DNA of 64,000 nucleotides. Origin: Pseudocercospora fijiensis CIRAD86. Lineage: Eukaryota > Ascomycota > Dothideomycetes > Mycosphaerellales > Mycosphaerellaceae. Position 1 is the first letter of the stretch. Every line of letters starts with the position of its first letter. Shown here one piece after another: positions 6,741 to 62,076 of the stretch. The translations under genes were made by a program, and so were the position numbers. The stretch lies in contig NW_006921539.1 of NCBI RefSeq assembly GCF_000340215.1, positions 2,242,507 through 2,306,506 of the forward strand, given 5' to 3'. Under the pieces are notes generated by a model. The model did no database searches. It was not told where the DNA came from and was given only the letters and a program-made list of their open reading frames with translations.

Positions 6741-7035
6741 AACACCTACTATCTTCGAATCTATTATAGTATTCCGATACTATCTCCTCTACTAGAATCG
6801 CTAAGGTAGGTTACTAAAGATTATACTAAAGGAGTTAATCGAGGAATTAGAAAACCTTAAGATCGAAGAAATCTAAGAGCGCGAAAAGAATGCGAAATTT
6901 AGTCTAAGCGAAACCCTAATTAGCGATAACGAAGAGGAGGAGGGCGGAGGTAGAAGGCGATACTAGGTCGAGAAGCGGAAACGTATATAGGCTTAGAGTA
7001 GCTTTAAGGAGACGAAGCGTTTACGTATAAGGTAA
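6741..7035 (+). pseudogene. hAT transposase C-terminal remnant (copy 3)
   Basis: Only the end of the hATC dimerisation domain and the acidic/basic tail remain. The reading SPTTFESIIVFRYYLL belongs to the same frame as copy 1 near 29,430. A probable stop lies at 7,033-7,035. Confidence 0.75.
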
Positions 7036-7346
7036 TATAGCCGGCGTATATAGCCGGTATATATCCGAAATGTGTTTCGAATTCCTAGGACCTAAACAGA
7101 CTAGTTGCTATAGCAACCGACCCCGCTTACCTACGGACTATTTCTAATTCTCTATTCGCTCTTCCTCTCCTTCTTCCCTTTCCCTATATTCTTAAAGACA
7201 AATATGCCTTAAAGATTCGGCTCTTCGGGCCTTCCTAAGCCGGCTGCCTCCCCTTCCTTAAGCTACTATCCTTTATTCGAATCTAACGATAACCTACTAA
7301 GGCGGTTTAATAGAAGACTATTTGTTCTAGAAGGCAAGAAGCATTA

Positions 7347-7988
7347 ATGTCTCCTTACGATTATATACTTATTAATTTTCTAGGTCCTACCGATATACCC
7401 TCGTCGCCTAAACGTATAGATAAATATCTTTAGAGGCTAAAGGGCAAGGGTAAAGTAAGCTAAGTATAGGGAGACCGTAGCGAGAACGAGATATCGGAAG
7501 AGTAAGGCTCTCTATAGTATATACGAAGGAAGGGGGTTCCTCGGAAAACAGTACCGAAAAACAAGAAGGCTTTAGGTAGATAGGAGAAGGCTAAAAAGAG
7601 TAGGCGGACGAAGACTATTACGAAGAAAAGTTATCTTTCTATTAAAAAAAAGGGAATAAGGCAGGACTCGACGATAAAGAAGCGGCGCTTTAAACTAGGT
7701 ACTATTACCCTTCGCTAGATCCGGCTTTTCTAAAACAAAAGAGGGACCGAGCTTTTAATCCCTAAGACTCCCTTTTAGCGACTCGTCCGAGAAATTACAT
7801 TAGATTTTCGGTCTAGTATACGATTTACGGCTAAGGCGATTAGTACTCTTTAGGAAGCTACGGAGGCATTTCTCGTAACCGAGCTTAAGCTTTTAAACCT
7901 CCTTACTATCTATACGAAGCGGGTTACTCTTTAAAATAAAGATATACAGCTTCTAGCTAAAATTCGGCGTCGGTTTATAGCGGATTAG
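7347..7988 (+). pseudogene. Histone H3 variant with long tail (copy 3)
   Basis: Same 642-bp frame as 28,184-28,825 in copy 1: ATG at 7,347 and TAG at 7,986, identical length, so no indel. The tail is long and basic, and the H3 core occupies the last third. Several TAG/TAA codons of RIP type interrupt it. See the copy 1 entry for domain details. Confidence 0.8.
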
Positions 7989-8029
7989 TTAGAAATTGTA
8001 TTTAGTCGTTAAATAAACCTAGGAGGAGG

Positions 8030-9090
8030 CCTATTTTCGTATCCTTTTACCGGCTATAGGTACCGGCTATATTTCTGATTTTATCTCCGCGCCGTCCCTA
8101 AATCTAAGGTACGAAGTAGAAACCTAGCGCTCTATATTTACCCGGCTATTACAGAGACGAGCTATATTTAGATTAGTTTCTTCGTATATCGCGACCTAGC
8201 GGGTAGTAAGCGAAAGGGCGATAGAACGTTTATAATACGTCTCTATTTAGACCTAAAATACAAAGGTCCTAAGGAGCCCTAGTATCCTAACTATAAGGAG
8301 ATTCTTTAGTATTAGTACTTTAATCCTTTATACTACGAGGCAGATAGTAAGCCTACGAGAGAGAAACTTTAACGAGAAATTCTCTATAATATATAGCGCT
8401 ATTATATAGCTATAGATGCGCACTAAGTCCGGTAACTCGAAGAAGAATTAAGATAGCGTATTAGCGACCGAGGAGGAGATCGATAGTATACTAGTAGAGT
8501 CGAGGTCTTATAAGCGAAGCATAAGATAATATAGGCTCTTAGTCGTATAGAGTAACGTACTATATAAATAACTAGGCGTACTACTCTTATTTACTTACGA
8601 CCTATATCCTAGGATGCTCTTATCGTACTTTTTATACTCTTTTCTAATACCTTACCTATAATCGCTCCGCGACAACCGAGTAAATATAAGCTATAGGATC
8701 TCCGCTCGGTACCTTAGCCTTCGAGATACGGCGGAGTTAATTCTCTATAATACGTAGCGCTATTATATAGCTACAGATACGCACTAAGTCCGGCAACTCG
8801 AAGAAGATTTAAGATAGCGACCGAGTAGGAGAATAATAGTATATTAGTAGAGTCGAGGTCTTATAAGCGAAGCACGAGATAATATAGGCTCTTAGTCGTA
8901 TAGAGTAACGTACTATATAAATAACTAGGCGTGCTACTCTTATTCACTTACGACCTTTATCCTAGGATACTATTCTCGTACTTTTTATACTCTTTTCTAA
9001 TACCTTACCTATAAGCGCTCCGCGATAACCGAGTAAATATAAGCTGTAGGGTTTCCGGTCAGTACCTTAGCCTCCGAGATAGGGCGGAGT
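8030..9090 (+). pseudogene. Unrecognised frame downstream of H3 variant, with 360-bp duplication (copy 3)
   Basis: Corresponds to 27,430-28,160 of copy 1. The segment from about 8,373 to 8,740 is repeated at 8,741-9,090 with roughly 5% differences. The junction GAGAATTAACTCCGC (minus strand) is the same one found in copy 4 at 37,006-37,020. Confidence 0.6.
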
Positions 9091-9428
9091 TGAATTTAGA
9101 GCGATAGCCGGCACTCGTAGCCGGCATATAGAGACGGTAGTAGGCCTTTTCCTACTAAATAACTAGCTTGTTTAGTATAGCCTACCTAATATTTCTTATA
9201 TTTACTAGCAATAGGCCTAGGTTACTTATAAGATTACTATAGCTAGTAAAGGCATTACTAAAGAATATCTATACTATAGTAGGATACTATTATTACGCCG
9301 GCTATTTATTAAAAGGAGGCTTTCGCCTATTACTATACCGGCTATATATGCCGGCTATATTTCAAAGTCTGCCGTACCTGCCTTTTTTAGCCGTGCCTGC
9401 CTTTTTTAGCCGTGCCTGCCTTCTTTCC

Positions 9429-9611
9429 TTACTCTAACGTTACTATAATATAGGCTTGCGCGAAGCTTACTCTATTGCCTAGCGATACCGCGATACTACC
9501 TCTCTCGCTATATTTAACCTTCGTATTAATACCTATACCTCTACGCTCTATATCTACTACCTCCGCAATACCCTCGCTCCGCGCGCGCCTTCGTATACCT
9601 TCGTAACGCAC
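9429..9611 (-). CDS. Small basic frame open on both strands (copy 3)
   Basis: Sixty codons beginning MRYEGIRRRARSEGIAEVVD, homologous to 26,908-27,138 of copy 1 and to a frame in copy 2 at about 56,505-56,695. It stays open in three RIPped copies, with an in-frame length difference near its middle. The opposite strand is also nearly open, so which strand codes is unclear. No family recognised. Confidence 0.35.
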   Translation of the reverse strand: MRYEGIRRRARSEGIAEVVDIERRGIGINTKVKYSERGSIAVSLGNRVSFAQAYIIVTLE

Positions 9612-9732
9612 TTTTTTCCTTAATTCGACGACTTTTATAATACCGAGTCTACTTAACTAAGTTACGACGCCTCGTAAGAAGGGACCTACTGCTTCTACGG
9701 GTCGTAATAAGACCGGAAATAATAGAACGAGT

Positions 9733-10300
9733 ATAGTATATTAACGTAAGAGGGCTGCTACTACTACCGCTAGCTCCGGTACTAGAAAGGGCGTCGCGAG
9801 CAAGGCTCCGCGTAAGACAACGGCGGGCAAGGCTCTACGCAAGACGACAACTAGCGCTTCTACTACTAGTAGCAATCGTACGAAGCGTCGATAGCGCCTA
9901 GGAAGTAAGTCCTATTTGTAGCCGGTAGCGTAGCCGGTAGCGTAGCCGGCATTCTTACTGTCTTTTTACTAATCCTTCTTTAGCCGTAGCCCTCCGTTAG
10001 ATTCGGTAGTATTAGAAGAGTTCTAAGCTCCTAATCCGTAACGCTCCTTTCCGACGACTTGTTCGCGAAATTGCCTAGGTTTATAGAACGGACCTTCGCT
10101 TCTAAGCCTCCGCGATAGACGCCCTTTAAGAGGCTATAGAAGCCTACCTAGTTCGTATCTTCGAATATATATTTCTCTCCTACCTCTTTTCGGACTATAC
10201 TAATACTATTTTAGCGGTTAACTTTACAGCTATCTACGCGAAGCGTATAACGATTATAGACAAGGATTTTAAAGCACTCGATTAGATTCTAAAAGGCTAG
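9733..10300 (+). pseudogene. Histone H3 with tail (copy 3)
   Basis: Homologue of 26,243-26,798 in copy 1. Exon 1 (9,733-9,904) encodes the basic tail with A-S-K-A-P-R-K. Intron 1 (9,905-9,983) starts GTAAGT, holds three TAGCCGG motifs and ends CTAATCCTTCTTTAG. Its removal creates the canonical H3 junction GTVALR. Exon 2 runs to 10,166. Intron 2 ends TTTTAG at 10,214, but its donor has changed from GT to AT, a RIP-type change, so splicing here should fail. Exon 3 ends at TAG 10,298-10,300. Confidence 0.85.
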
Positions 10301-10611
10301 AATATCTATATTCGAGATAGTGCTAGGTAGGATAGATATTCTAGTAGGAAGGATATTCGTAGTATCGTCTATAAGCTTTTCTATATACGAAATAAGCCGC
10401 GGTTATACGGCGCTATATACCGCGCTCTAAATACTCTCTAAGTATATATATATAGTATAGTATACTTTATTAGCCGTACGGAATAGAAGTCTTCGAAAAT
10501 CCCGTTAGTACTAAGGAGTTAAAAGGCCGGCTACGCTGCCGGCTACGCTGCCGGCTACGCTGCTAGGTCTTATAAAGAACTAAAAGAAGATAGACATTCT
10601 AGTTAATTTGT

Positions 10612-11150
10612 ATTAGTTTAGATTTTTAGAAAAAGAAAACAAGGAAAAAAGGAAGAAGATTAAAGAACCTAATACTTATAGTTATAGGCATTATCCCTAT
10701 TCTCTAGACTATATTATATACCTGCTTTCGCAACTCTACCTAATACTCCTACTAAATATCCTTATACTCTACCTACTAGAAATTCAACTAGGTACCTAGA
10801 CCTATAGCTACCTCTATATCTTTTACTATCTTCTATAGGTTAAAGGACTCCTCTATAGTAGCCTCTACTTCCTTATATAATACGAAGTTACTGCCTACCC
10901 TATCCTTAATATCTACTAAATAACCTAGAGTTCTAAGGAACGAACTAGCATTCGGCCGTAGTATAGCGAGTAACTAGTAGAACGCCCTATAGAGCTGCCT
11001 TATAGCTGTTTCGTATATAGTGCCGATATCGAGGGAGGAGCTATCCTAGTACTTAATGTTAGAGTATAGTTTAGTAGGAAAGTGTATAAACTTCTTACGG
11101 AGAGCTTCGACGGAAATCGATAAGTTCTACCTAGATCTAGATAAAGATAT
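10612..11150 (-). pseudogene. Roughly 180-codon helical protein frame (copy 3)
   Basis: Inverted homologue of 25,379-25,918 in copy 1. The start ATG is ATA here (RIP-type). Boundaries are taken from the copy 1 alignment and may shift by a few bases because of small indels. Confidence 0.5.
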
Positions 11151-11582
11151 TCTGCTAAGCAGTTAGGGAATTGAACTGTAAACGAAAGGATGAAATTTAT
11201 ACCTAAGGAGTGCAGTTTCCGAACTGAACTATAATGCCTTATATATATATATATATACTTTTAATTGGTTAGTGCCCTTAGCTAATTGTCTATAGATTTA
11301 AGGTTATATAAGTACCTTTATACAACTACGTAGCCTAAGTAGGATTCGAAAATTCTATAAGTACTAAGGACTAAAAATGCCGGCTACGCTGCCGGCTACA
11401 CTGCTAAGTCTTACAAAGGGCTTGCTTAAAGCTACGTATACATTCGTATACTTCTTAAAAACCGATAAATTATATAGTTCGAACCAGCTACTTATATAGT
11501 TGCTTAGCAAACCAACCTAAACTAAACTAGAGTTTCGGCTTAGCAAACCAAACCAAACTAACCCGAACTACTACGGGGTCTA

Positions 11583-24743: not shown

Positions 24744-24946
24744 TAAAGGACGGAAACCAAAACCACTACTACTACTAGTAGTAATAGTATAGGCTACCGA
24801 GGGTAACATAACCTATAGCAATATAAGCAGCTATGTTTAGTATAATAGGATAATAAGACGGTTGCTTAGGCTAATAACTAGAGCCCTATAATATAGGCAT
24901 TATAGAAGTGTAATATAAACAATGTACTATACGAGGTTAGTGCTCT
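24744..24946 (-). repeat. L2 5' LTR, inner part (split by hAT copy 1)
   Basis: 203 bp matching 12,690-12,892. It ends with the 8-bp target duplication AGTGCTCT (24,939-24,946), after which hAT copy 1 begins. The remaining 77 bp are at 34,496-34,572. Confidence 0.92.
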
Positions 24947-24966
24947 TAGACCCCGCAGTAGTTCGG
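24947..24966 (+). repeat. hAT copy 1 left terminal inverted repeat
   Basis: TAGACCCCGCAGTAGTTCGG, exactly inverted at 34,468-34,487. The next 60 bp are subterminal GGTTTGG/GGTTTGCTAAG repeats. Confidence 0.93.
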
Positions 24967-25378
24967 TTTGGTTTGGTTTAGTTTGCTAAGCCGAAACTCT
25001 GGTTTGGTTTGGGTTGGTTTGCTAAGCAACTATATAAGTAGCTGGTTCGAACCATATAATTTATCGGTTTTTAAGAAGTGTACGAATGTATACGTAGCTT
25101 CAAGCAAGCCCTTTGTAAGACTTAGCAGTGTAGCCGGCAGCGTAGCCGGCATTTTTAGTCCTTAGTACTTATAGAATTTTCGAATCCTACTTAGGCTACG
25201 TAGTTGTATAAAGGTACTTATATGACCTTAAATCTATAGACAATTAGCTAAGGGCACTAACTAATCAAAAGCATATATATATATATACAAGGCATTATAG
25301 TTTAGTTCGGAAACTGTACTCCTTAGGTATAAATTTCATCCTTTCGTTTACGGTTCAATTCCCTAACTGCTTAGTAGA

Positions 25379-25918
25379 ATGTCTTTATCTAGATCTAGGT
25401 AGAACTTATCGATTTCCTTAGAAGTCCTCCTCCTTGAGAAGTTTATACACTTTCCTACCGAACTATTCGATAATATTAAGTACTAGGATAGCTCCTCCCT
25501 CGGTATCGGTATAGTATATAAAAGAGCTATAAGGTAGCTCTATAGAACGTTCTACTAGTTACTCGCTATACTAAGGCCGAATGCTAGTTCGTTCCTTAGA
25601 ACTCTTAGTTATTTAGGAGATATAAAGGGTAGGGCAGGTAGTAACTTCGTATTGTATAAGGAGGTAGAGGCTGCTATAGAAGAGGCCTTTAACCTATAGA
25701 AGATAGTAAAAGATATAGAGGCAGCTGCAGGTCTAGGTACCTAGTTGAATTTTTAGTAGGTAGAGTATAAGGATATTTAGAGGGAGTATTAGGTAGAGTT
25801 GCGAAGGCAGGTATATAATATGCTCTAGAAAACAGGGATAGTGCCTATAACTATAACTATTAGGCTCTTCAACCTTCCTTATTTTTCCCTGTTTTCTTTT
25901 TATAAAAATCTAAACTAA
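25379..25918 (+). pseudogene. hAT cargo: roughly 180-codon helical protein, unrecognised
   Basis: Plus-strand frame from ATG 25,379 (MSLSRSR, then a codon that is TAG here and CAG in copy 2) to TAA 25,916. Readings include NLSISLEVLLLEKFIHFPTE, ASSFLRTLSYLGDIKGRAG and NFVLYKEVEAAIEEAFNL, a mostly helical soluble protein. It is the only cargo frame on the strand opposite the transposase. It is conserved in copies 2 (54,952-55,491) and 3 (10,612-11,150). No family recognised. Confidence 0.55.
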
Positions 25919-26242
25919 TACAAATCAACCGGAATGTCTATCTTCTTTTAGTTCTTTAAAAAACCTAGCAGCGTAGCTAGTAGCGTAGCCGGCAGCGTAG
26001 CCGGCAGCGTAGCCGGCCTTTTTACTCCTTAGTACTAACGGGATTTTAGGAGACTTCTATTCCGTACGGCTAATAAAGTATACTATACTATATATATATG
26101 CTTAGAGAGTATTTAGAGCGCGGTATGTAGCGCCGTATAATAGCGGCTTATTTCGCATATAGAAAAGCTTATAGATAACACTACGAACATCCTTTCTACT
26201 AGAATATCTATCCTACCTAGTACCGTCTCGAATGTAGACATT

Positions 26243-26798
26243 CTAGCCTTTTAGAATCTAATCGAGTGCTTTAAAATCCTTATCTATAATCGTTATACGC
26301 TTCGCGTAGATAGCTATAAGGTTAACCGCTAAAATAGTATTAGCATAGTCCGAAAAGAGGTAGAAGAGAAATATACATTCGAAGATACGAACTAGGTAGG
26401 CTTCTATAGCCTCTTAAAGGGCGCCTATCGCGGAGGCTTAGAAGCAAAGGTCCGTTCTATAATCCTAAGCAATTTCGCGAACAAGTCGTTAGAAAGGAGT
26501 TTTGCGGATTAAGAGCTAAGAACTCTTCTAATACTGCCGAATCTTACGGAGGGCTACGGCTAAAGAAGGATTAGTAAAAAGACAGTAAGAATGCCGGCTA
26601 CGCTGCCGGCTATAAATAGGACTTACTTCTTAGGCGCTATCGACGCTTCGTACGATTGCTACTAGTAGTAAAAGCGCTAGTTGTCGTCTTACGTAGAGCC
26701 TTGCCCGCCGTTGTCTTACGCGGAGCCTTACTCGCGACGCCCTTTCTAGCACCGGAGCTAGCGGTAGCAGCAGTAGCCCTCTTACGTTAATGTACTAT
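26243..26798 (-). pseudogene. hAT cargo: histone H3 with canonical-type tail, two introns
   Basis: Nucleosome core histone. Exon 1 (26,627-26,798) encodes the tail: GARKGVASKAPRKTTAGKAL, then RKTTTSA and SNRTKRRQRL, matching the H3 spacing around K9, K14, K18, K23 and K27. Intron 1 (26,560-26,626) runs GTAAGT to CTAATCCTTCTTTAG and contains paired GCCGGC. Exon 2 (26,377-26,559) opens (T)VALRKIRQY, then LLIRKTPF, RLVREIA, FQASAIGALQEAIEAYLV and RIFE. Intron 2 (26,329-26,376) runs GTATAT to GCTAATACTATTTTAG. Exon 3 encodes VNLIAIYAKRITIIDKDFKA and stops at TAG 26,243-26,245, about three residues short of canonical H3. The start is read from ATA at 26,798 (ATG lost to RIP); upstream codons are also basic, so the tail may be longer. 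By eye about two thirds of core residues match canonical H3. Four or more RIP-type stops kill this copy. Confidence 0.88.
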
Positions 26799-26907
26799 GC
26801 TCGTTCTACTATTTCCGGTCTTGTTGCGACCCGTAGAAGTACTAGGTCCCTTCTTACGAGGCGTCGTAACTTAGTTAAGTAGACTCGCTATTATAAAAGT
26901 CGTCGAA

Positions 26908-27138
26908 TTGAGGAAAAAAGTGCGTTACGAAGGTGTACGAAGGCGCGCGCGGAGCGAGGGTATTGCGGAGGTAGTAGATATAGAGCGTAGAGGTATAGGT
27001 ATCGATGCGAAGGTTGAATATAGCGGTAATATCGCGGTATCGCTAGGCAATAGAGTAAGCTTCGCGCAAGCCTATATTATAGTAACGTTAGAGCAAGGAA
27101 AGAAGGCAGGCACGGCTAAAAAAGGTAGGTACGGCTAA
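26908..27138 (+). CDS. Small basic frame, open on both strands
   Basis: Seventy-six codons with no stop, beginning MRKKVRYEGVRRRARSEGIA and ending in a GKKAGTAKKGRYG tail that runs into the GGCACGGCTAAAAAA repeat. It overlaps the region immediately upstream of the H3 gene on the opposite strand, where the minus strand is also nearly open. It may be the H3 5' region rather than a gene. No family recognised. Confidence 0.35.
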   Translation: MRKKVRYEGVRRRARSEGIAEVVDIERRGIGIDAKVEYSGNIAVSLGNRVSFAQAYIIVTLEQGKKAGTAKKGRYG

Positions 27139-27429
27139 AAAAGGCAGGTACGGGAGACTTTGAAATATAGCCGGCATATATAGCCGGCATAGTAATAGGC
27201 GAAAGCCTCCTTTTAATAAATAGCCGGCGTAATAATAGTATCTTACTATAGTATAGATATTCTTTAGTAATGCCTTTACTAGCTATAGTAATCTTATAAG
27301 TAACCTAGGCCTATTACTAGTAAATATAAGAAATATTAGGTAGGCTATACTAAACAAGCTAGTCATTTAGTAGGAAAAGGCCTACTACCGTCTCTATATG
27401 CCGGCTACGAGTGCCGGCTATCGCTCTAA

Positions 27430-28165
27430 ATTCAACTCCGCCCTATCTCGGAGGCTAAGGTACCGAGCGGAAACCCTATAGCTTATATTCACTCGGTTGT
27501 CGCGGAGCGCTTAGAGGTAAGGTATTAGAAAAGAGTATAAAAAGTACGAGAAGAGTATCCTAGGATATAGGTCGTAAGTAAATAAGAGTAGTACGCCTAG
27601 TTATTTATATAGTACGTTACTCTATACGACTAAGAGCCTATATTATCTTATACTTCGCTTATAAGACCTCGACTCTACTAGTATACTATCGATCTCTTCC
27701 TCGGTCGCTAATACGCTATCTTAATTCTTCTTCGAGTTGCCGGACTTAGTACGCATCTATAGCTATACAATAGCGCTACGTATTATAGAGAATTTCTCGT
27801 TAAAGTTTCTCTCTCGTAGGCTTACTATCTGCCTCGTAGTATAGAGGATTAAAGTGCTAATGCTAAAGAATCTCCTTATAGTTAGGATACTAGGGCTCCT
27901 TAGGACCTTTGTGTTTTAGGTCTAAATAGAGACGTATTATAAACGTTCTATCGCCCTTTCGCTTACTACCCGCTAGGTCGCGATATACGAAGAAACTAAT
28001 CTAAATGTAGCTCGTCTCTATAATAGCCGGGTAAATATAGAGCGCTAGGTTTCTACTTCGTATCTTAGATTTAGGGACGGCGCGGAGATAAAATTAGAAA
28101 TGTAGCCGGTACCTATAGCCGGCAAAAGGATGCGAAAATGGGCCTCCTCCTAGGTTAATCTAACG
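27430..28165 (-). pseudogene. Unrecognised frame downstream of the H3 variant
   Basis: About 230 codons in the same frame as the H3 variant, beyond its TAG at 28,184. Readings include RAVPKSKIRSRNLALYIYPA, SFFVYRDLAGSKRKGDRTFI, IRLYLDLKHKGPKEP and a charged Glu/Arg-rich stretch (QLEEELR). It could be a separate gene or, if the TAG was CAG, a C-terminal extension of the H3 variant. A paired CCGG motif lies between them (28,103-28,122). This segment is tandemly amplified in copies 3 and 4. Confidence 0.5.
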
Positions 28166-28183
28166 ACTAAATACAATTTCTAA

Positions 28184-28825
28184 CTAATCCGCTATAAACC
28201 GACGCCGAATTTTAGCTAGAAGCTGTATATCTTTATTTTAAAGAGTAACCCGCTTCGTATAGATAGTAAGGAGGTTTAAAAGCTTAAGCTCGGTTACGAG
28301 AAATGCCTCCGTAGCTTCCTAAAGAGCACTAATCGCCTTAGCCGTAAATCGCATACTAGACCGAAAATCTAATGTAATTTCTCGGACGAGTCGCTAGAAG
28401 GGAGTCTTAGGGATTAAAAGCTCGGTCCCTCTTTTGTTTTAGAAAAGCCGGATCTAGCGAAGGGTAATAGTACCTAGTTTAAAGCGCCGCTTCTTTATCG
28501 TCGAGTCCTACCTTATTCCCTTTCTTTTAATAGAAAGATAACTTTTCTTCGCGATAGTCTTCGTCCGCCTACTCTTTTTAGCCTTCTCCTATCTACCTAT
28601 AGCCTTCTTGTTTTTCGGTACTGTTTTCCGAGGAACCCCCTTCCTTCGTATATACTACGGAGAGCCTTACTCTTCCGATATCTCGTTCTCGCTACGGTCT
28701 CCCTATACTTAGCTTACTTTACCCTTACCCTTTAGCCTTTAAAGATATTTATCTGCGCGTTTAGGCGACGAGGGCATATCGGTAGGACCTAGAAAATTAA
28801 TAAGTATATAATCGTAAGGAGACAT
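28184..28825 (-). pseudogene. hAT cargo: histone H3 variant with long basic tail
   Basis: A 213-codon frame, ATG 28,825-28,823 (MSPYDYILINFLGPTDMPSS) to TAG 28,184. The first 110 residues are basic (KNKKAIGR, KAKKSRRTKTIAKKSYLSIK). The H3 fold follows at about 28,190-28,500: KKRRFKLGTITLR (the GTVALR position), LLIPKTPF, RLVREITLDF, RFTAKAISAL, EATEAFLVTE, TKRVTL and NKDIQLLAKIRRRF. It differs from the H3 at 26,243: no introns in the core, two extra residues before TELLIPK, and a different tail. The long tail recalls centromeric H3, but the loop between the first two core helices lacks the usual CenH3 insertion, so I call it only an H3 variant. Present in all four copies. Confidence 0.85.
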
Positions 28826-29136
28826 TAATGCTTCTTGCCTTTTAGAACAAATAGTCTTCTATTAAACCGCCTTATTAGGTTATCGTTAGATTCGAATAAA
28901 GAATAGTAGCTTAAGGAAGGGGAGGCAGCCGGCTTAGGAAGGCCCGAAGAGCCGAATCCTTAAGGTATATTTATCTTTAAGAATATAGGGAAAGGGAAGA
29001 AGGAGAGGAAGAGCGAACAGAGAATTAGAAATAGTCCGTAGATAAGCGGGGTCGGTTGCTATAGCAACTAGTCTATTTAGGTCCTAGGAATTCGAAACAC
29101 ATTTCGGACATATACCGGCTATATACGCCGGCTATA

Positions 29137-32100
29137 TTACCTTATACGTAAACGCTTCGTCTCCTTAAAGCTACTCTAAGCCTATATACGTTTCCGCTTC
29201 TCGACCCGGTATCGCCTTCTATCTCCGCCCTCCTCCTCTTCGTTATCGCTAATTAGGGTTTCGCTTAGACTAAATTTCGTATTCTCTTCGCGCTCCTAGG
29301 TTTCTTCGATCTTAAGGTTTTCTAATTCCTCGATTAACTCCTTTAGTATAATCTTTAGTAACCTACCTTAGCGATTCTAGTAGAGGAGATAGTATCGGAA
29401 TACTATAATAGATTCGAAGGTAGTAGGCGAGTATATTCGATTAAAGCGGCCCTAGTAACGAGCGATACTAAAAGACCTCTTATAGCCTATACCTACGCTC
29501 GGGATAGCGAGGACGTCCCGAGCGACCGACGCTATCGTTAGAAACTTAGGCTCTAACCGCTGCTATATAGCGAGAATATCGTCTCCGAATTCGTTTAGAA
29601 GACCGGTAAGATCTAGAGATTATTAGCCCTCTTTCCGAGCCTACGGGTTTATACTTACTCGCGCGCCGATAGAGATCGAACTCTTCTTTATTTACTTTAG
29701 TAGTTGCTTCCTCTTCTGCCTCTACTTCCTACTTACGAAATAGGTATAATGTCGGAGCCTTCTAAACCTTCTTTTTCTTTATAGGAGCTGCATTTAGACT
29801 AGTTTCTTTCCGACGCTCGTAGAACATCTTTTCTAGAATAGTCTAGTAATACTTCGGCTATACCTCGTCCGCCTTCTATTCCGGCCTCTACTAGTATATA
29901 TCCTTTTCTACCGGGTTAAGCAAGTACGTAACGCTATAGATATCCCCGAACGAGTTAAAGGTAGCACTATAATATTTATGCAACTTAGTATAGGAGGTGT
30001 CTATAGCTTTCGTTATAGCTACTTTCTAGGGAACGCTCTTCTTAGCTAGCTTAGCTACGGTTTCCTCGAGCTCGTTAAAGAGCTAGTTATAGTATATAAA
30101 GACAAGGTAGATCGTCGGTCCTCGGGTTCTTCTAATCGTAGTAGTAACCTTCGCGTAATGCTTACTAATATCGACGAGATACTCTGCTTAGCGCTATTCG
30201 GCGGCGGTAAGGCCGAGCTACTTAATACCCTCGGAACTCTAATAGATCTCGAGAGCGGTACGTAAAGTATATCCCCTCGTAACTATATAGAAAGTCGAAT
30301 CGAACCGGGTCTTAACGTCTTAGGTAAAACGGAGTAGGCGCTAAGGAGGCCGCTTTTGCTATCGCTTATTCTATACGATATTCTAGGCATCGGTTTTAGG
30401 GCGCTCGATTAGGTTCTTTTAAATAGCCTCGAATCGGTTATATCTCTATAAGCTCGAGTTCGTATATATTGCTAGACGACGAAGCTAGAGAAAAAGAGTT
30501 AGAACTATACTAGGTTGCCGGCTATAGGTGCCGGCTACGGACAAAAGTTATACCTTATATAAAACGAGAGCGAGGCTCTCTGCCTTATCCCGTCTTATTG
30601 CTATAATAAGTTTCTCGACTTTCGACTTTGCTTTATCCTTATCTAGGATCTTCTATTAGTCGTCGTTTAATAGTGCAATTTTAAGCGTCTTAAAGAGGGC
30701 TCGGATCGCGATTTGAACTATATAAGCGAGGTAGGGAAACTTCTATAGGGATGCAACTAGTAACGACGTCGGCTCCGATTTAATAGAGCTAGGGCTATTA
30801 ATAGGCTCCTCTTTATCGTTATTATCGTACGTATTATCGTGCGTATCCGGAATCGTAGCGAGCTTAATATTCGGAAGATTAAGCTAGATTATAGACCTTA
30901 TAATCTCCTCTACGTACTCGACCCTATCGATACAATTAGTGATTTTAAAGATATATGCGAGTGAATTATATATACAACGCCTTATACAATGTTCGATTAT
31001 TACTAGCGTTGTCCGTAGTAATCGAGATTAGTTTCGTTATTACGCTAACCCTATCTATTACCGTATAGACAAGCTTCGCTATATCCTTACTAGTATAGGA
31101 ACCTAGAATTTTAGGGAATCCGATTATAAGTTCCTAGAGTTTCTAATCCGAATTGATAAAGTATAGTATAATCGAGAGGAAGGAGGCTCTTATAGTCCGG
31201 CTTAACTAGCTATCGATAGCAATAGCTACTCGGCGAGTATTACGGAGGATCTCCCGAATATCGTCTAACGCAGCCTCTTTATTCTTTTCGAATATAATAC
31301 GCTAGGTTGTCGCGCCGAGAAATAGGGGAGGGTAGTTTATAAGATATAGGTATGTCTTCTATATAGACTCCCTTTCGTAGAAGTCTTCCGGAAGACCGTT
31401 TATAGCTAGCATTTCGTTTACTAGTTGCTTAAAGTCTTCGGGGGAGAAATCGGTAGCCTTTAATCCTAGAGCTTCCTTAAGCGTAGCCTATAATAATTAG
31501 CTAGATCTCTACGGTTGATTTAGGTAGCCGGAATCTATAGCCGGTAGCTATAGCCGGTAGCTATAGCCGGCATTTTAGAAGATATACCTCTTTCTAGAAC
31601 GCTATATCTATATCAACTCTCCTCTCTCCTTAAGATTCCTAACACTGTTTAGAATAGAGATAGTTCGTAGGCGATAAGTTCCTATCCCCTAGTTTCGGGT
31701 ATTTTAAGATTAAACCGTAGAAGTTATAGACAATTACTAGTTAACCTTTAAGTCGAGAAGTCGTATAACGGTATAATGCCCCCTCTATAAAGAACTTCTA
31801 GAATGTGTCCGTTCGCTCCTTACTCCCCTATCGCATCGAGTACTTCCGGAGTTTACACTCCTTCGAACGTAAGTATAAAGGGAACTATATCTTATAGACC
31901 TATTAATTGAACTGCTCTATATACTCGGGTTTCTAAAGATACGCCTAGCTAGCCTTTTCGAAGATTTCCGGGTTAATACTCGATGTTCTTATATCTCCGA
32001 ACAACCTTCTACTTAGACTCCGTAAAGGTAAGGACTAGGTAGTAGTACCCTATAATAAATTCCTACTACTAGGATTCGGAGAGGATGAATCTAGCCCTAA

Positions 32101-32325
32101 TCGTAGTCTAGGACTCGATAGGCTCGAAGGTAAGTATACGACCTCCTCTCGACGTTGTCGTAATCTCGCTCGTATACTAGACTATTTCGACTATCGTCTC
32201 GTTATTACCCTTCCTAGTATAGCGCCTAGTATATATACAATGTCGGTCGGTATATTTTAAGGTTTCGTACGGTAAGGTAAGGACTTAGGAGTAGTAGATA
32301 TATACTAGTAGCTATAGAGAAACAT
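29137..32325 (-). pseudogene. hAT-superfamily transposase, three introns, RIP-inactivated
   Basis: Cut-and-paste transposase. ATG at 32,325 (GTG in copy 2); stop TAA at 29,137. The N-terminal part reads NPEIFEKAS and QFPLYLRSKECKLRKYSMR; no clear BED finger was found. Introns: 31,498-31,587 (GTATAT...GCTAATTATTATAG, with four CCGG motifs), 30,485-30,553 (GTATAA...CTAACTC...CTAG, with two) and 29,613-29,658 (GTAAGT...GCTAATAATCTCTAG). Core readings typical of hAT include RRVAIAIDS (DDE Asp), LSIILYFINSD, ELIIGFPKILGSYTSKDIAK, ITTDNASNN, TRFDSTFYIV, GPTIYLVFIYYNQLFNELEE and LHKYYSATFN. The hATC domain reads LNEFGDDILA, ARDVLAIPSVGIGYKRSFSI and SPTTFESIIVFRYYLL. The acidic-basic tail ends KETKRLRIR. 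Many RIP stops. Confidence 0.92.
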
Positions 32326-32369
32326 CCTTTCTTTTATAGTATCGTATCGTTAGGAACAGCTAGGTAGTA

Positions 32370-32490
32370 AATAGCTAGCTACCTTTTTTTTTTGTTTCCT
32401 AGCTACCTAACTACTAGATTTTTTTTCCTAGCTACCCTAGCTAGCCTAACTACTAGAATTTCTTTCCTAGCTACCCTAACTACCTAAATT
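32370..32490. repeat. Short TAGCTACC / poly-T repeat
   Basis: Three rough copies of CCTAGCTACC...AACTACTAG followed by runs of 6-9 T, in the gap between the lysine-rich gene and the transposase. The same array is in copy 2 (61,967-62,087). Possibly part of the divider or promoter; function unknown. Confidence 0.55.
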
Positions 32491-33897
32491 TTGCCTTCTA
32501 TACGGCGGCTCTCTCCTACTAACGGAACCGAGCTACTATACCTAACGAATCTAAGCTCGTTTTTAGTCTTAATCTATCCTCTTTCGGTATAAGACACTCG
32601 ATAAGTAAATGCTTAGGCCGAGTCTAACTACGAAACCTAAGACTAACTAATAGCTCTATTAACTAATCCTAATCCTCGAACTCCTTCCGCTTCTTAGTAA
32701 AGACCTTAAAGAGCGCTCGAGCTTCTTCGGGTATCTACGGAGTAGTCGAGATAAAGCCGTATCGCTAAAATGGGTAATCCTTTAGAGGCTTATATAGAGA
32801 TTTAGAGAATTCTAACGCTAACCTATCCTACTAGCAGCTTAGATTCCGGATACAAGCCCTCTCTACCTTAGTAAAGATTTCATATAGTAGTAGCACTCTA
32901 CCTTCGAGAAACGCTTTCTATTTAACTGTTAGTATCTGCCGGCTACGAACGCCGGCTATATATGCCGAGTATAGAATAATTACCTATACCCCTTCCTCCT
33001 ATAGTAACACTTCTACCGTCCCTAGATACCTAGCCCCGATCGCATTAATCGTAAGCCACTTTGCCTTTATAGACGTAAAGGCTTCGCTCTAATACTAATA
33101 AAGAAACTTCTACTCTATATCGAGGATATAAAGACGACTAGTCTCGATTCCAATCCTTACTAGCTTTTCGTAGTAGCTTTAACTATGATTTTCTAGATTA
33201 ATAGGACTTATGCCTTAGCCCTTTACTAGTATCTCGTCTCTTTAACTATACTCGATCTACTCCTAGCGCTTATCGTCTATAGCGTTAGGCCCTAAGACTA
33301 TACCTGTTACTAGATCGACGTATAGTATCTCCTCGCTTTTTTCAGTTCCTTTATTCGTAGTATTAAGCTCTATCGCGGTATCCTAAACTCTAGTATTGTT
33401 ATTCTCGGCTATCTAAACATCTCCGTTACTATCGGTCGTATCGATAGAGGTAGCGGCTATAGGTCTGAATGCTATTAGTTAACGTATTAAAGAAAAATAT
33501 ACTAGCTATAGCTGCCGGCTACGGCTGCCGGCTATAGCTACTAGCTACGGCCGCTAGCTAGATTGACTTACGCTACTAGAACTTCACGCTCGAAAACTAG
33601 CCGCAATTCTTTCCTCCTCTTAGCCTTCTCTTAGATTGTCTTCTTATTCTAACCTTTACTTTTTTCTATAGGCGCTAGCTATCGATAGAATGCCTTATTC
33701 CGCGCCTTTCTTCTCTTATCCTTAGCTCTTTTATCCTTATCTATCTTGTCCTTTCTCTCGCGGTCTCGTACGGAATTCTTCTTCGTAGAGTACTCCTCTT
33801 TAGTCTTACGCTTTTTAGTTAGACGCTTAGGCAAAACAAACTCGCGGTCTTTAGTTCTATCTTCTATTTAGCGTACGGCGCGCTTCTCTCTTACTAT
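32480..33897 (-). pseudogene. hAT cargo: lysine-rich protein, about 470 codons, unrecognised
   Basis: Minus-strand frame upstream of the transposase. The start is probably ATA at 33,897 (ATG lost; MVREKRAVR). The N-terminal 100 residues are Lys/Arg/Glu-rich (VLPKRLTKKRKTKEEYSTKK, DKIDKDKRAKDKRRKARNKA), suggesting nuclear localisation or a coiled coil. Two breaks, near 33,500-33,540 and 32,935-32,975, hold paired GCCGGC and are probably introns. The middle reads ILYVDLVTGIVLGPNAIDD and FTSIKAKWLTINAIGARYLG; the C-terminus reads EEARALFKVFTKKRKEFED and ends at TAG 32,480. Present in copy 2 (62,077-63,494). No family recognised. Confidence 0.6.
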
Positions 33898-34043
33898 TGT
33901 AAGGGAAAGGGGCGGGGGCGCAGCGTATAGTAGTTATTGTCGGTATAGGTATAGAGGAAGAAGTTGAAAGTGTAAGAATGTCGCGAAGCCCTAATTATTG
34001 CCGCCTACGTAACGTTATATAGGTAAGCTTTCGCAACTACGGT

Positions 34044-34123
34044 AACTACGCCCCGGTAATAGCAACTACGCCCTAGTAACGGCAACTACGCCCTAGCAAC
34101 GGCAACCACGCCCTAGCAACGGT
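34044..34123. repeat. Right-end 20-bp tandem repeat, block 1
   Basis: Four units of AACTACGCCCTAGCAACGGC with RIP-type variation. The surrounding segment of about 165 bp, including a paired TAGCCGGCA, is duplicated at 34,207-34,340. Subterminal repeats are common transposase-binding sites in hAT elements. Confidence 0.8.
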
Positions 34124-34206
34124 AATAAAGCGTAGTAAATACAACCTAGTAACTATTATAGCCGGCAATCGTAGCCGGCAGTCGAACAAGAGTGTCCTTA
34201 TAGCAA

Positions 34207-34266
34207 AACTACGCCCTAGCAACGGCAACTACGCCCTAGTAACGGCAACTACGCCCTAGCAACGGC
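34207..34266. repeat. Right-end 20-bp tandem repeat, block 2
   Basis: Three further units of the same repeat in the second copy of the duplicated right-end segment. Copy 2 has the equivalents at 63,641-63,720 and 63,804-63,863. Confidence 0.8.
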
Positions 34267-34467
34267 AAAAGAGCGTAGTAAATGTAACAGAGTTACTATT
34301 ATAGCCGGCAATCGTAGCCGGCAGTCGAATAAGAGTGTCCTTATAGTAAAACTAATACAGTCTCTAGTTTAAACTAGGAATCTATATAGTTCGAAAAAAC
34401 CAAACCGGAACTAGGGAGCTAGTTCGCCGCTAAGAAACCAAACTATATACGTTTAGTGGTTCGGAAA

Positions 34468-34487
34468 CCGAACTACTGCGGGGTCTA
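34468..34487 (-). repeat. hAT copy 1 right terminal inverted repeat
   Basis: CCGAACTACTGCGGGGTCTA, the complement of the left end, followed by the AGTGCTCT target duplication. Confidence 0.93.
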
Positions 34488-34495
34488 AGTGCTCT

Positions 34496-36285: not shown

Positions 36286-38641
36286 CTAGGTAATAGAGTA
36301 AGCGTCGCGCAAGCCTATATTATAGTAACGTTAGAGTAAGGAAAGAAGGCAGGTTTAGCTAAAAAAGGCAGGTACGGCAAACTTTGAAATATAGCCGGTA
36401 TATATAGCTAGTATAGTAATAGGCGAAAGCCTCCTTTTAATAAATAGTCGGCGTAACAATAGCATCCTACTACAGCACAGATATTCTTTAGTAATTCCCT
36501 TACTAGCTATAGTAATCTTATAAGTAACCTAGGCCTATTACTAGGAAATATAAGAAATATTAGGTAGGCTATACTAAACAAGCTAGCTATCTAGTAGGAA
36601 AAGGCCTACTACCGTCTCTATATACCGGCTACGAGTGCCGGCTATCGCTCTAAATTTAACTCCGCCCTATCTTAGAGGCTAAAGTACCGAGCGGAAACCC
36701 TATAGCTTATATTTACTCGGTTGTCGCGGAGCGCTTATAGGTAAGGTATTAGAAAAGAGTATAAAAAGTACGAGAAGAGTATCCTAGGATATAGGTCGTA
36801 AGTAAATAAGAGTAGTACGCCTAGTTATTTATATAGTACGTTACTCTATACGACTAAGAGCCTATATTATCTCGTACTTCGCTTATAAGACCTCGACTCT
36901 ACTAATATACTATTAATCTCCTCCTCGGTCGCTATCTTAATTCTTCTTCGAGTTGCCGGACTTAGTACGTATCTATCGCTATATAATAGCGCTACGTATT
37001 ATAGAGAATTAACTCCGCCGTATCTTAACGGCTAAGGTACCGAGCGGAAATTCTATAGCTTATATTTACTCGGTTATCGCGGAGCGCTTATAAGTAAGGT
37101 ATTAGAAAAGTATATAAAAAGTAATACCTCTAGATTCAACTCCGCCGTATCTTAAAGGCTAAGGTACCGAGCGGAAATCCTATAGCTTATATTTACTCGG
37201 TTATCGCAGAGCGATTATAGGTAAGGTATTAGAAAAGAGTATAAAAAGTACGAGAAGAGTATCCTAGGATATAGGTTGTAAGTAAATAAGAGTAGCACGC
37301 CTAGTTATTTATATAGTACGTTACTCTAAATAACTAAGAGCCTATATTATCTCGTACTTTGCTTATAAGACCTCGACTCTACTAATATACTATTAATCTC
37401 CTCCTCGGTCGCTATCTTAATTCTGCTTCGAGTTGCTAGACTTAGTACGTATCTATCGCTATATAATAGCGCTACGTATTATAGAGAATCTCTCGTTAAA
37501 GTTTGTCTCTTATAGGCTTACTATCTACTTCGTAGTATAGAGAATTAAAGTACTAATACTAAAGAATCTCCTTATAGTTTAGATAATAGGGCTCCTTAGG
37601 ACCTTTATATTTTAGGTCTAAATAGAGACGTATTATAAACGTTCTATCGCCCTTTCGCTTACTATCCGCTAGGTCGCGATATACGAAGAAACTAATCTAA
37701 ATATAGCTCGTCTCTATAATAGCCGGGTAAATATAGAGCGCTAGGTTTCTACTTCGTACCTTAGATTTAGGGACGGCGCGGAGATAAAATTAGAAATATA
37801 GCCGGTACCTATAGCCGGTAAAAGGATACGAAAATAGGCCTCCTCCTAGGTTAATCTAACGACTAAATATAAGTTCTAACTAATCCGCTATAAACCGACG
37901 CCGAATTTTAGCTAGAAGCTATATATCTTTATTTTAAAGAGTAACCCGCTTCGTATAGATAGTAAGGAGGTTTAAAAGCTTAAGCTTAGTTACGAGAAAT
38001 GCCTCCGTAGCTTCCTAAAGAGTACTAATCGCCTTAGCTATAAATCGTATACTAGACCGAAAATCTAATATAATTTCTCGGACGAGTCGCTAAAAGGGAG
38101 TCTTAGGGATTAAAAGCTCGGTCCCTCTCTTGTTTTAGAATAGCCGGATCTAGCGAAGGGTAATAGTATCTAGTCTAAAGCGCCGCTTCTTTATCGTTAA
38201 GTCCTATCTTATACCCTTTTTTTAATAGAAAGATAACTTTTCTTCGCGATAGTCTTCGTCCGCTTACTCTTTTTAGCCTTCTCCTATCTACCTAAAGCCT
38301 TTTTGTTTTTCGGTACTATTTCCCGAAGAACCCCCTTCCTTCGTATATACTATAGAGAGTCTTACTCTTCCGATATCTCGTTCTCGCTATAGTCTCCCTA
38401 TATATAGCTTGCTTTACCCTTGCCCTTTAGGCTCTAAAGGTATTCTTATACGCGTTTAGGCGACGAGGGTATATCGCTAGAACCTAGAAAATTAATAAGC
38501 CTATAATCGTAAGGAGACATTTATACTTCTTACCTTCTAGATTAAATAGTCTTCTATTAAACCGTATTAGTAGGTCCTCTTTAGATTCGTATAAAGGATA
38601 GTAGCTAAAGGAAGAGGAAGCGGCCGGCTTAGGAAGGCCCG
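36286..38641 (-). mobile_element. hAT element copy 4, internal fragment
   Basis: Matches copy 1 from about 27,042 to 28,950, without either terminus, histone H3 gene 1 or transposase. The segment at 36,655-37,010 is repeated partially at 37,011-37,130 and again from 37,134, with the same junction as the duplication in copy 3, so copies 3 and 4 form a subfamily. It is more decayed than copies 1 and 2. Confidence 0.85.
37880..38520 (-). pseudogene. Histone H3 variant (copy 4), frameshifted
   Basis: Homologue of 28,184-28,825: ATG 38,520 to TAG 37,880, 641 bp. One base is missing in the CCCTTTTTTT run near 38,215-38,225, shifting the frame between tail and core, besides RIP stops. Confidence 0.75.
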
Positions 38642-38728
38642 ATTCTAATAGTACGTAATAAAGCCCTATTATTGCAATCTAAGCTCCGAAGGCAAATCCT
38701 AAATTGCGATAAAAGTCTTAGCGTTTAC

Positions 38729-44619: not shown

Positions 44620-47056
<2,437 letters not shown>

Positions 47057-54519: not shown

Positions 54520-54951
54520 TAGACCCCGCAGTAGTTCGGGTTGGTTTGGTTTGGTTTACTAAGCCGAAACTCTGGTTTAGTTTGGGTTGGTTTGCTAAGC
54601 AACCATATAAGTAGCTAGTTCGAACTATATAATTTATCGGTTTTTAAGAAGTGTACGAATGTATACGTAGCTTCAAGCAAGCCCTTTGTAAGACTCAGCA
54701 GTGTAGCCGGCAGCGTAGCCGGCATTTTTAGTCCTTAGTACTTATAGAATTTTCGAATCCTACTTAGGCTACGTAGTTATATAAAGGTACTTATATAACC
54801 TCAAATCTATAGATAATTAGCTAAGGGCACTAACTAATCAAAAGCATATACATATATATATAAGGCATTATAGTTCAGTTCGGAAACTGTACTCCTTAGG
54901 TATGAATTTTATCCTTTCGTTTACGGTTCAATTCCCTAACTGCTTAGTAGA

Positions 54952-55491
54952 ATGTCTTTATCTAGATCTAGGCAGAACTTATCGATTTCCCTAGAAGTCC
55001 TCCTCCTTAAGAAGTTTATATACTTTCCTACCGAACTATTCGACAATATTAAGTACTAGGATAGCTCCTCCCTCGGTATCGGCATAGTATATAAAAGAGC
55101 TATAAGGCAGCTCTATAGAACGTTCTACTAGTTACTCGCTATACTAAGGCCGAATGCTAGTTCGTTCCTTAGAACTCTTAGTTATTTAGGAGATATAAAG
55201 GGTAGGGTAGGTAGTGACTTCGTATTGTATAAGGAGGTAGAGGCTACTATAGAAGAGGCCTTTAACCTATAGAAGATAGTGAAAGATATAGAGGCAGCTA
55301 CAGGTCTAGGTACCTAGTTGAATTTTTAGTAGGTAGAGTATAAGGATATTTAGAGGGAGTATTAGGTAGAGTTGCGAAGGCAGGTATATAATATGCTCTA
55401 GAAAACAGGGATAGTGCCTATAACTATAACTATTAGGCTCTTCAACCTTCCTTATTTTTCCCTGTTTTCTTTTTATAAAAATCTAAACTAA
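54952..55491 (+). pseudogene. hAT cargo 180-codon frame (copy 2)
   Basis: As 25,379-25,918. The CAG at codon 8 (TAG in copy 1) shows directly that such stops were Gln. Confidence 0.55.
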
Positions 55492-55815
55492 TACAAATCA
55501 ACCGGAATGTCTATCTTCTTTTAGTTCTTTGAAAAACCTAGCAGCGTAGCTAGTAGCGTAGCCGGCAGCGTAGCCGGCAGCGTAGCCGGCCTTTTTACTC
55601 CTTAGTACTAACGGGATTTTAGGAGACTTCTATTCCGTACGGCTAATAAAGTATACTGTACTATATATATATGCTTAGAGAGTATTTAGAGCGCGGTATG
55701 CAGCGCCGTATAATAGCGGCTCATTTCGCATATAGAAAAGCTTATAGATAATACTACGAACATCCTTTCTACTAGAACATCTATCCTACCTAGTACCGTC
55801 TCGAATATAGACATT

Positions 55816-56395
55816 CTAGCCTTTTAGAATCTAATCGAGTGCTTTGAAATCCTTATCTATAATCGTTATACGCTTCGCGTAGATAGCTATAAGGTTAACC
55901 GCTAAAATAGTATTAGTATAGTCCGAAAAGAGGTAGAAGAGAAACATATATTCGAAGATACGAACTAGGTAGGCTTTTATAGCCTCTTAAAGGGCGCCTA
56001 TCGCGGAGGCTTAGAAGCGAAGGTCCGTTCTATAATCCTAGGCAATTTCGCGAACAAGTCGTTAGAAAGGAGTTTTACGGATTAGGAGCTAAGAACTCTT
56101 CTAATACTGCCGAATCTTACGGAGGGCTACGGCTAAAGAAGGATTAGTAAAAAGATAGTAAGAATGCCGGCTACGCTGCCGGCTACGCTACCGGCTACGC
56201 TACCGGCTATAAATAGGACTTACTTCCTAGGCGCTATCGACGCTTCGTACGATTACTACTAGCAGTAGAAGCGCTAGTTATCGTCTTACGTAGAGCCTTG
56301 CCCGCCGTTGTCTTACGCGGAGCCTTGCTCGCGACGCCCTTTCTAGTACCGGAGCTAGCGGTAGTAGCAGCAGCCCTCTTACGTTAATGTACTAT
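55816..56395 (-). pseudogene. Histone H3 with tail (copy 2)
   Basis: As 26,243-26,798, with both introns at the same places; intron 1 is longer by 24 bp because it holds four CCGG motifs instead of two. Same TAG end. Confidence 0.87.
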
Positions 56396-57026
56396 ACTCG
56401 TTCTACTATTTCCGGTCTTGTTGCGACCCGTAGAAGCACTAGGTCCCTTCTTACGAGGCGTCGTAACTTAGTTAAGTAGACTCGCTATTATAAAAGTCGT
56501 CGAATTAAGGAAAAAAGTGCGTTACGAAGGTATACGAAGGCGCGCGCGGAGCGAGGGTATTACGGAGGTAGTAGATATAGAGCGTAGAGGTATAGGTATC
56601 GATACGAAGGTTGAATATAGCGGTAGTATCGCGGTGTCGCTAGGCAATAGAGTAAGCTTCGCGCAAGCCTATATTATAGTAACGTTAGAGTAAGGAAAGA
56701 AGGTAGGCACGGCTAAAAAAGGCAGGCACGGCTAAAAAAGGCAGGTACGGGAGATTTTGAAATATAGCCGGTATATATAGCCGGTATAGTAATAGGCGAA
56801 AGCCTCCTTTTAATAAATAGCCGGCGTAATAATAGTATCTTACTATAGTATAGATATTCTTTAGTAATACCTTTACTAGCTATAGTAATCTTATAAGTAA
56901 CCTAGGCCTATTGCTAGTAAATATAAGAAATATTAGGTAGGCTATACTAAACAAGCTAGTTATTTAGCAGGAAAAGGCCTACTACCGTCTCTATATGCCG
57001 GCTACGAGTGCCGGCTATCGCTCTAA

Positions 57027-57762: not shown

Positions 57763-57780
57763 ACTAAATACAATTTCTAA

Positions 57781-58422: not shown

Positions 58423-58733
58423 TAATGCTTCTTGCCTTCTAGAACAAATAGTCTTCTATTAAACCGCCTTATTAGGTTATCGTTAGATTCGAATAAAGGA
58501 TAGTAGCTTAAGGAAGGGGAGGCAGCCGGCTTAAGAAGGCCCGAAGAGCCGAATCCTTAAGGTATATTTGTCTTTAAGAATATAGGGAAAGGGAAGAAGG
58601 AGAGGAAGAGCGAATAGAGAATTAGAAATAGTCCGTAGGTAAGCGGGGTCGGTTGCTATAGCAACTAGTCTATTTAGGTCCTAGGAATTCGAAATACATT
58701 TCGGATATATACCGGCTATATACGCCGGCTATA

Positions 58734-61922: not shown

Positions 61923-62076
61923 CCTTTCTTTTATAGCATCGTATCGTTAGGAACAGCTAGGTAGTAAATAGCTAGCTACCTTTTTTTTTTGTTTCCTAGC
62001 TACCTAACTACTAGATTTTTTTTCCTAGCTACCCTAGCTAGCCTAACTACTAGAATTTCTTTCCTAGCTACCTTAA

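What the first reader, a model, noticed from the sequence alone, without database searches (positions are those of the whole stretch)
24947..34487. A 9.5-kb hAT transposon that carries its own histone H3 genes
Seen: one complete element with matching 20-bp inverted ends and a perfect 8-bp target duplication. It encloses an hAT transposase and two distinct H3-fold frames on the same strand, and the same set occurs in copy 2 and, where not truncated, copies 3 and 4. Established: hAT elements normally encode only a transposase, and H3 genes are host core-histone genes. Inference: the histones are stable cargo, possibly used to shape the chromatin of the element or to blunt H3K9-based silencing or RIP. 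I know of no published hAT with H3 cargo.
Basis: partly seen in the sequence, partly recalled or inferred. Interest (0 to 1): 0.96.

Follow-up and report, generated by a model that had tools for sequence, protein, structure and literature searches.

The report
Dead fungal transposon carrying histone genes
The window holds a mutated fungal jumping gene that carries two histone H3-like genes; this family was already described in print in 2019, and what is added here is that one of the two histone genes looks like an intron-bearing gene rather than a copy of a spliced transcript.

Summary
24947-34487 is a 9,541-bp element with 23-bp identical inverted ends, a perfect 8-bp target duplication, hAT-like transposase remains and two histone-H3-like genes (H3A, H3B) on one strand. 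All 20 copies fetched whole from elsewhere in the genome hold both H3 regions in the same order. Every H3 copy read is broken by TAG/TAA stops, as RIP would make them.

Dhillon et al. 2019 (PMC6710886) describe what is almost certainly this family in Pseudocercospora fijiensis; Manning et al. 2013 (PMC3538342) describe another H3-carrying hAT in Pyrenophora.

What differs from print: the published '16-aa insertion' of the second H3 reads as a 48-nt intron, and H3B has another intron one codon from a host H3 intron, so H3B is hardly a plain retrocopy. Exon indels between element subfamilies keep frame (9 of 9; outside exons 3 of 8). Codon-position tests for selection were not significant. No chromatin role is shown.

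The parts
24939..24946 (.). target site duplication, left (AGTGCTCT)
24947..24969 (+). terminal inverted repeat, left, 23 bp identical to the right one
26270..26328 (-). H3B, last exon of the fold as far as it aligns with host H3
26329..26376 (-). H3B intron 2, 48 nt; the '16-aa insertion' of Dhillon et al.
   Evidence: coordinates read by eye
26377..26559 (-). H3B, first part of the histone fold, broken by stops
26560..26626 (-). H3B intron 1, 67 nt in this copy (GTAAGT...ACTAAT...TTTAG), holds AGCCGG repeats
26627..26858 (-). H3B lysine-rich tail exon (start not defined), with ARK, KAPRK, KALRK
   Evidence: no Pfam match of its own
28184..28648 (-). H3A, intronless H3-like frame, tail and fold, broken by stops
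29386..29685 (-). transposase remains, hATC-like dimerisation region
   Evidence: PF05699 E 0.0035, under cut-off
30927..31487 (-). transposase remains, frame with TDNASNN; taken as the RNase-H-like part of a hAT transposase from recalled motifs
   Evidence: Pfam matches weak and inconsistent
34465..34487 (-). terminal inverted repeat, right
34488..34495 (.). target site duplication, right (AGTGCTCT)
54520..64000 (+). copy 2 of the element, cut by the window end; both H3s present
6745..11582 (-). copy 3, inverted and truncated; both H3s present
36286..38642 (+). copy 4, fragment; H3A only

Best explanation
This is one RIP-killed copy of the high-copy, H3-carrying hAT family that Dhillon et al. 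2019 described in Pseudocercospora fijiensis. Working copies presumably moved by hAT cut-and-paste transposition: the transposase acted on the inverted ends, and what lies between them, two H3-like genes included, moved along and left an 8-bp duplication (shown: anatomy, ends, duplications, copy number; inferred from hAT biology: the mechanism). Once repeated, the copies were mutated by RIP, so none of the H3 copies read here can make its protein (shown: stops and transition bias; inferred: RIP as the cause). When alive, the element most likely carried H3A and H3B as ordinary protein-coding genes: H3B bears two introns, and both genes kept their frame between subfamilies (inferred; not proven).
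For: Ends and duplication; H3 folds; 831 TIR matches (419 + 412) against 2 in the control; 20 of 20 fetched whole copies with both H3 regions and both transposase pieces; perfect duplications in 10 of 11 copies with both flanks readable, 4 more consistent as far as fetched, 5 unreadable; 36 of 36 H3A and 28 of 28 readable H3B copies with stops, 428 stops all TAG or TAA, transitions 87 to 9 and 126 to 12; matching description in PMC6710886 including element length, end length, two H3-like copies, 16-codon insertion in the second, original three-exon H3 on scaffold 6 (here contig 6). Introns. Frame.
Against: The assembly is unnamed and my attempt to name it failed, so species identity is inference; the paper's TIR letters are in a figure not held and were not compared. 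Transposase domain matches stay under the Pfam cut-offs and a homologue search with one piece found nothing. L018 does not show matching duplications. Codon-position tests do not establish selection on the H3 proteins, and H3B exons changed more than the stretches scored as introns.
Confidence: 0.94

Rival explanations
1. Published account of origin: a host H3 transcript (retrocopy) was captured; the second copy's 16-aa insertion is a mutation that arose before amplification; the cargo never mattered.
For: H3A is intronless at both host intron positions; Dhillon et al. recovered exon-exon junctions without introns; the codon-position test shows no clear selection.
Against: H3B has GTAAGT...TTAG between tail and fold in 27 of 29 copies matched, with the phase of host intron 2 and one codon away, and a 48-nt intron-like insert whose removal gives a gap-free 80-codon alignment with host H3; exon indels between subfamilies are in frame 9 of 9.
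Confidence: 0.35
2. Element-encoded H3 variants worked for the element, for instance by altering its own chromatin or blunting H3K9-based silencing.
For: Frame kept between subfamilies; KAPRK in 24 of 24 main-family H3B tails, ARK in 7 and TRK in 17 of them.
Against: All copies read are broken; the four S2 tails have no ARK and S3 lacks the KAPRK block; no expression data; heavy RIP shows no protection.
Confidence: 0.1
3. The H3 frames are host genes next to or nested in the element by misassembly or chance insertion.
For: None found.
Against: Same position in 20 of 20 fetched whole copies on many contigs, and in divergent subfamilies.
Confidence: 0.01

Closest known systems
H3-carrying hAT family of Pseudocercospora fijiensis (Dhillon et al. 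2019, Mobile DNA 10:37, PMC6710886)
   Same: Full-length elements of 9.5-9.9 kb, 20-bp TIR, 8-bp TSD, one or two H3-like copies, 16-codon insertion in the second, RIP, original three-exon H3 on scaffold/contig 6. Almost certainly the same family and genome.
   Different: I read the insertion as an intron and find a further intron in H3B, against the paper's conclusion that introns are absent; I find a weak hATC match where the paper could not identify that domain, and no DUF659 match where it reports one. It states that no direct or inverted repeats were found; the window copy has 35 AGCCGG motifs in both directions.
H3L-carrying hAT of Pyrenophora tritici-repentis (Manning et al. 2013, G3 3:41-63, PMC3538342; passages read)
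   Same: hAT-type element with a transposase and an H3-like gene between its inverted ends, amplified in a Dothideomycete.
   Different: About 5.6-kb and 2.3-kb forms, one H3L and a central ORF, nearly identical copies with ESTs. Dhillon et al. report no nucleotide similarity between the two families. No protein-level comparison was run here.

Membership tests
hAT superfamily | 8-bp target site duplication | tested here: met
   window copy plus 10 of 11 fetched copies with both flanks readable; L018 fails; 4 consistent in part, 5 unreadable
hAT superfamily | short terminal inverted repeats | tested here: met
   23 bp identical; 831 matches genome-wide against 2 in the control
hAT superfamily | transposase with hATC dimerisation domain (PF05699) | tested here: inconclusive
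   E 0.0016-0.0035 in 4 of 5 raw pieces, 0.088 in the fifth, all under the cut-off; none in the window in the genome-wide search
hAT superfamily | DUF659 (PF04937), reported for this family by Dhillon et al. | tested here: not met
   21 matches genome-wide, none in the window; no PF04937 in raw frames
hAT superfamily | catalytic activity, cut-and-paste movement | not testable with these tools
   only broken copies were read
P. fijiensis H3-hAT family (Dhillon 2019) | 9.5-9.9 kb, 20-bp TIR, 8-bp TSD, two H3-like copies, 16-codon insertion in one | tested here: met
   against the text
P. fijiensis H3-hAT family (Dhillon 2019) | same letters of TIR and consensus as published | not tested
   figure and supplement not held or not opened
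P. fijiensis H3-hAT family (Dhillon 2019) | intact three-exon host H3 on scaffold 6 | tested here: met
   C6:1692026, no stops; exons read by eye
core histone H3 | histone fold (PF00125) | tested here: met
   H3A 1.1e-22, H3B 3.1e-18 on raw frames; H3A aligns with H3 chains from residue 4-10 on, tail included
core histone H3 | makes a protein that enters nucleosomes | not testable with these tools
   all copies read are broken
retrocopy of the host H3 transcript | no introns | tested here: not met
   not met for H3B, met for H3A; splicing itself was not observed

The most novel reading that the evidence does not exclude
The hAT lineage did not just drag along a dead H3 retrocopy. It carried two distinct H3 genes, one with introns, as working cargo long enough to split into subfamilies with differing lysine-rich tails (KAPRK-type blocks duplicated or lost in frame) before RIP killed them. 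With the independent case in Pyrenophora, transposon-encoded H3 variants would then be a recurring strategy.
Probability: 0.35. Interest if true: 0.65.

Novelty: already known. Interest (0 to 1): 0.32.

Why it matters
The main claim is in print, so as a discovery it is ordinary. The correction matters modestly: if H3B is a spliced, frame-constrained gene, the published account (capture of a transcript, dead cargo) is incomplete, and whether transposons use histones of their own becomes testable in relatives with less damaged copies.

Tried and rejected
Transposase homologues: with one raw piece, 3,475 candidates shared words and none scored E <= 1e-5. H3A homologues: 48 proteins at E <= 1e-5 among 71 candidates; those opened (11) are H3-type proteins, mostly unnamed and without genomic context, so no intact H3-hAT was found. 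The best hit, P0001, has a repeated KAPRK(T/S)VAGK tail like that of H3B (15 of 21 identical; two other hits only 10 of 15 and 9 of 13); kept as a lead, since such blocks also occur in ordinary H3 tails. Naming the species through the glucoamylase frame failed: the listed hits that bear a name belong to other fungi.

Transversion tests, which RIP cannot disturb, were meant to show selection and did not clearly do so. In one search the H3B exons (main family against S2: 24 of 233 sites in the fold, 10 of 119 in the tail) changed more than the stretches scored as introns (1 of 121), which speaks against strong constraint on the H3B protein. The stretch scored as intron 1 holds 12 nt or 14 nt of exon. 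Three frames upstream of the transposase (31488-32702, minus strand) gave no Pfam match at E <= 0.1. One five-term literature search found no paper. PMC4994206 mentions transduplication only in its reference list, and the passages of PMC8616336 do not concern H3 cargo.
Full report
What is there. The window lies in a 73.9-Mb, 30-contig genome. The element at 24947-34487 is 9,541 bp long, has 23 identical bases at both ends in inverse orientation and is flanked by AGTGCTCT on both sides. A tblastn with the fold of the host H3 finds two H3-like frames inside it, both on the minus strand: H3A at 28205-28474 (the HMM match runs to 28576) and H3B at 26270-26557. The same two occur in copy 2 and copy 3, and H3A alone in copy 4. 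Pfam on raw frames with X at stops gives Histone at E 2e-37 in two stretches; as pieces, H3A gives 1.1e-22 and the H3B core 3.1e-18. H3A aligns with H3 chains of solved structures, tail included (query 21-148 against chain 5-131 in the best match). On the same strand upstream of H3A lie a frame with the stretch TDNASNN (30927-31487; reading this as the hAT RNase-H part is recalled knowledge) and a hATC-like frame (29386-29685) that matches PF05699 at E 0.0016-0.0035 in 4 of 5 raw pieces and 0.088 in the fifth, all below the curated cut-off.

More than chance, and not misassembly. The 20-nt TIR with up to two mismatches occurs 419 + 412 times in the genome against 1 + 1 for the pattern read backwards. 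PF00125 had 772 first-look candidates, of which 150 were scored; 148 of the 150 carry stops. I fetched 20 whole copies (all from minus-strand hits among those 150): 20 of 20 hold both H3 regions in the same order, and both transposase pieces. 12 of the 20 carry a second copy of a 360-bp stretch, 8 do not. Of 11 with both flanks readable, 10 have perfect 8-bp duplications and L018 does not; 4 more agree as far as the fetched flank goes; 5 could not be read.

The copies read are dead. In the stretches scored, 36 of 36 H3A copies carry 6-9 in-frame stops and 28 of 28 readable H3B copies 4-7 (a 29th, L003, does not reach that stretch); all 428 stops are TAG or TAA. Polymorphic sites among main-family copies are 87 transitions to 9 transversions in the H3A alignment and 126 to 12 in the H3B alignment. 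This is what repeat-induced point mutation (RIP) leaves.

Prior art. A literature search found Dhillon et al. 2019 (PMC6710886; outline and parts 1-5 of 7 of the text read; figures and supplements not seen). It reports for Pseudocercospora fijiensis an H3 gene captured by a hAT transposon, 784 H3-like copies in 471 elements, a full-length class of 9.5-9.9 kb, 20-bp TIR, 8-bp TSD, one or two H3-like copies, a 16-aa insertion in the second, inactivation by RIP, the original three-exon H3 on scaffold 6, and similar events in five relatives. The intact three-exon H3 here is on contig 6. Manning et al. 2013 (PMC3538342; passages only) describe a 5.6-kb hAT with an H3-like gene in Pyrenophora tritici-repentis. 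The finding is therefore already known. The species name is my inference; the assembly is unnamed. Further searches listed no other paper on this family in the library held.

What the raw sequence adds: introns. The 16-codon insertion in H3B is exactly 48 nt in 27 of 29 aligned copies. Of the two others, L021 has the same 48 nt but missed my pattern by one following base, and L003 does not reach it. It ends TTTTAG in 27 of 27 (the pattern asked for TTTAG), has TACTAAT in 23 and TGCTAAT in 4, and starts GTATGT in 7; the other starts (ATATGT 8, ATATAT 8, GTATAT 4) differ only by G-to-A changes. Taking it out gives a gap-free 80-codon alignment with host H3, with 52 of 74 non-stop residues identical. 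I read it as a spliceosomal intron. The tail-like part and the fold of H3B lie in different frames and are separated by a stretch of 67-116 nt that starts GTAAGT in 27 of 27 matched copies; the pattern required the ACTA..TTAG end but not the start (L029 and L003 did not match). The junction has the phase of host intron 2 and lies one codon from it, as read by eye. So H3B is not a plain retrocopy, while H3A is intronless at both host positions.

What the raw sequence adds: frame. Divergent subfamilies exist: S2 (L003, L029, L030, L031) and S3 (L033), 72-89% identical to the window copy over the H3 regions. All five hold the H3A fold, and four the H3B fold; L003 is cut there. Between subfamilies the exon indels are 12, 6 and 21 nt in H3A and 3, 3, 6, 27, 30 and 15 nt in H3B: 9 of 9 multiples of three. 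Outside exons they are 1, 3, 25, 36, 50 (intron 1), 1, 17 and 3: 3 of 8 (three gaps of L029 past its truncation were left out). By hand the one-sided Fisher value is about 0.009, but several are repeat-unit changes, so they are not independent. Within the main family the picture is weaker: a 27-nt exon indel in 8 copies (an added KAPRK-type block), two 1-nt indels in H3A, and intron indels of 12, 24 and 36 nt, also multiples of three.

Selection test, not conclusive. RIP makes only transitions, so transversions are free of it. Between main family and S2, transversions fall 4/1/5 on codon positions 1/2/3 in the H3A fold (p 0.22) and 6/6/12 in the H3B fold (p 0.063); in the tails 3/3/4 and 3/4/3. 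Main family to S3 gives 3/0/2 and 6/4/5, S2 to S3 1/1/3 and 8/6/13. The hATC piece has 3 in 221 sites. The H3A fold (10 of 272 sites) is less changed than its upstream flank (9 of 139), but the H3B exons are more changed than the introns. Selection on the H3 proteins is not proven. Against host H3, the H3B and H3A folds are 52 of 74 and 46 of 83 identical at non-stop residues, and 40 of 72 to each other.

How it works. Most likely a hAT cut-and-paste element whose cargo moved because it lies between the ends, now dead by RIP. Whether the H3 proteins did anything for the element is open. The main-family H3B tail keeps KAPRK in 24 of 24 copies and ARK in 7 (TRK in the other 17), but none of the four S2 copies has the ARK, and S3 lacks the KAPRK block.

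Verdict. Observation confirmed; family already published; a small correction to the published gene model, which if borne out would make the cargo more gene-like than thought.

Noticed in passing
24947-34487: 35 copies of AGCCGG (both directions), mostly in pairs or short arrays 12-13 bp apart, against a mean of 5.6 and a maximum of 14 in 200 first-order random sequences; 20 in 37,565 bases of the window outside the four copies. One array lies in H3B intron 1 and varies in length there. Possibly transposase binding sites or a small inserted repeat.
   Followed up: partly
about 27432-27793 (element position 6695-7056 in coding orientation): A 360-bp stretch present twice in 12 of 20 fetched copies and once in 8; it accounts for most of the 9.5 versus 9.9 kb length classes.
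   Followed up: no
44985-47056 (+): Island of about 51% G+C in RIP-damaged surroundings with glucoamylase-like frames; for the 45362-46144 frame the 120 listed hits (of 1,252) carry PF00723, best 80% identity. The gene is split over several frames, so it may hold introns or be broken.
   Followed up: partly
50356-50778: About 420 bases of (ATA)n repeat directly after a run of N, so an assembly gap.
   Followed up: no
3074-6754 and 49341-54119: Another repeated, RIP-damaged sequence (84-88% identical copies, partly in tandem), apparently unrelated to the H3 element.
   Followed up: no
G000:C5:606604-606795: A second PF00125 match without stops (64 positions), perhaps a host core-histone exon.
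   Followed up: no
P0001 (unnamed protein, 181 aa): An H3 with a tail of repeated KAPRK(T/S)VAGK blocks, resembling the block-wise tail of H3B (15 of 21 identical).
   Followed up: partly
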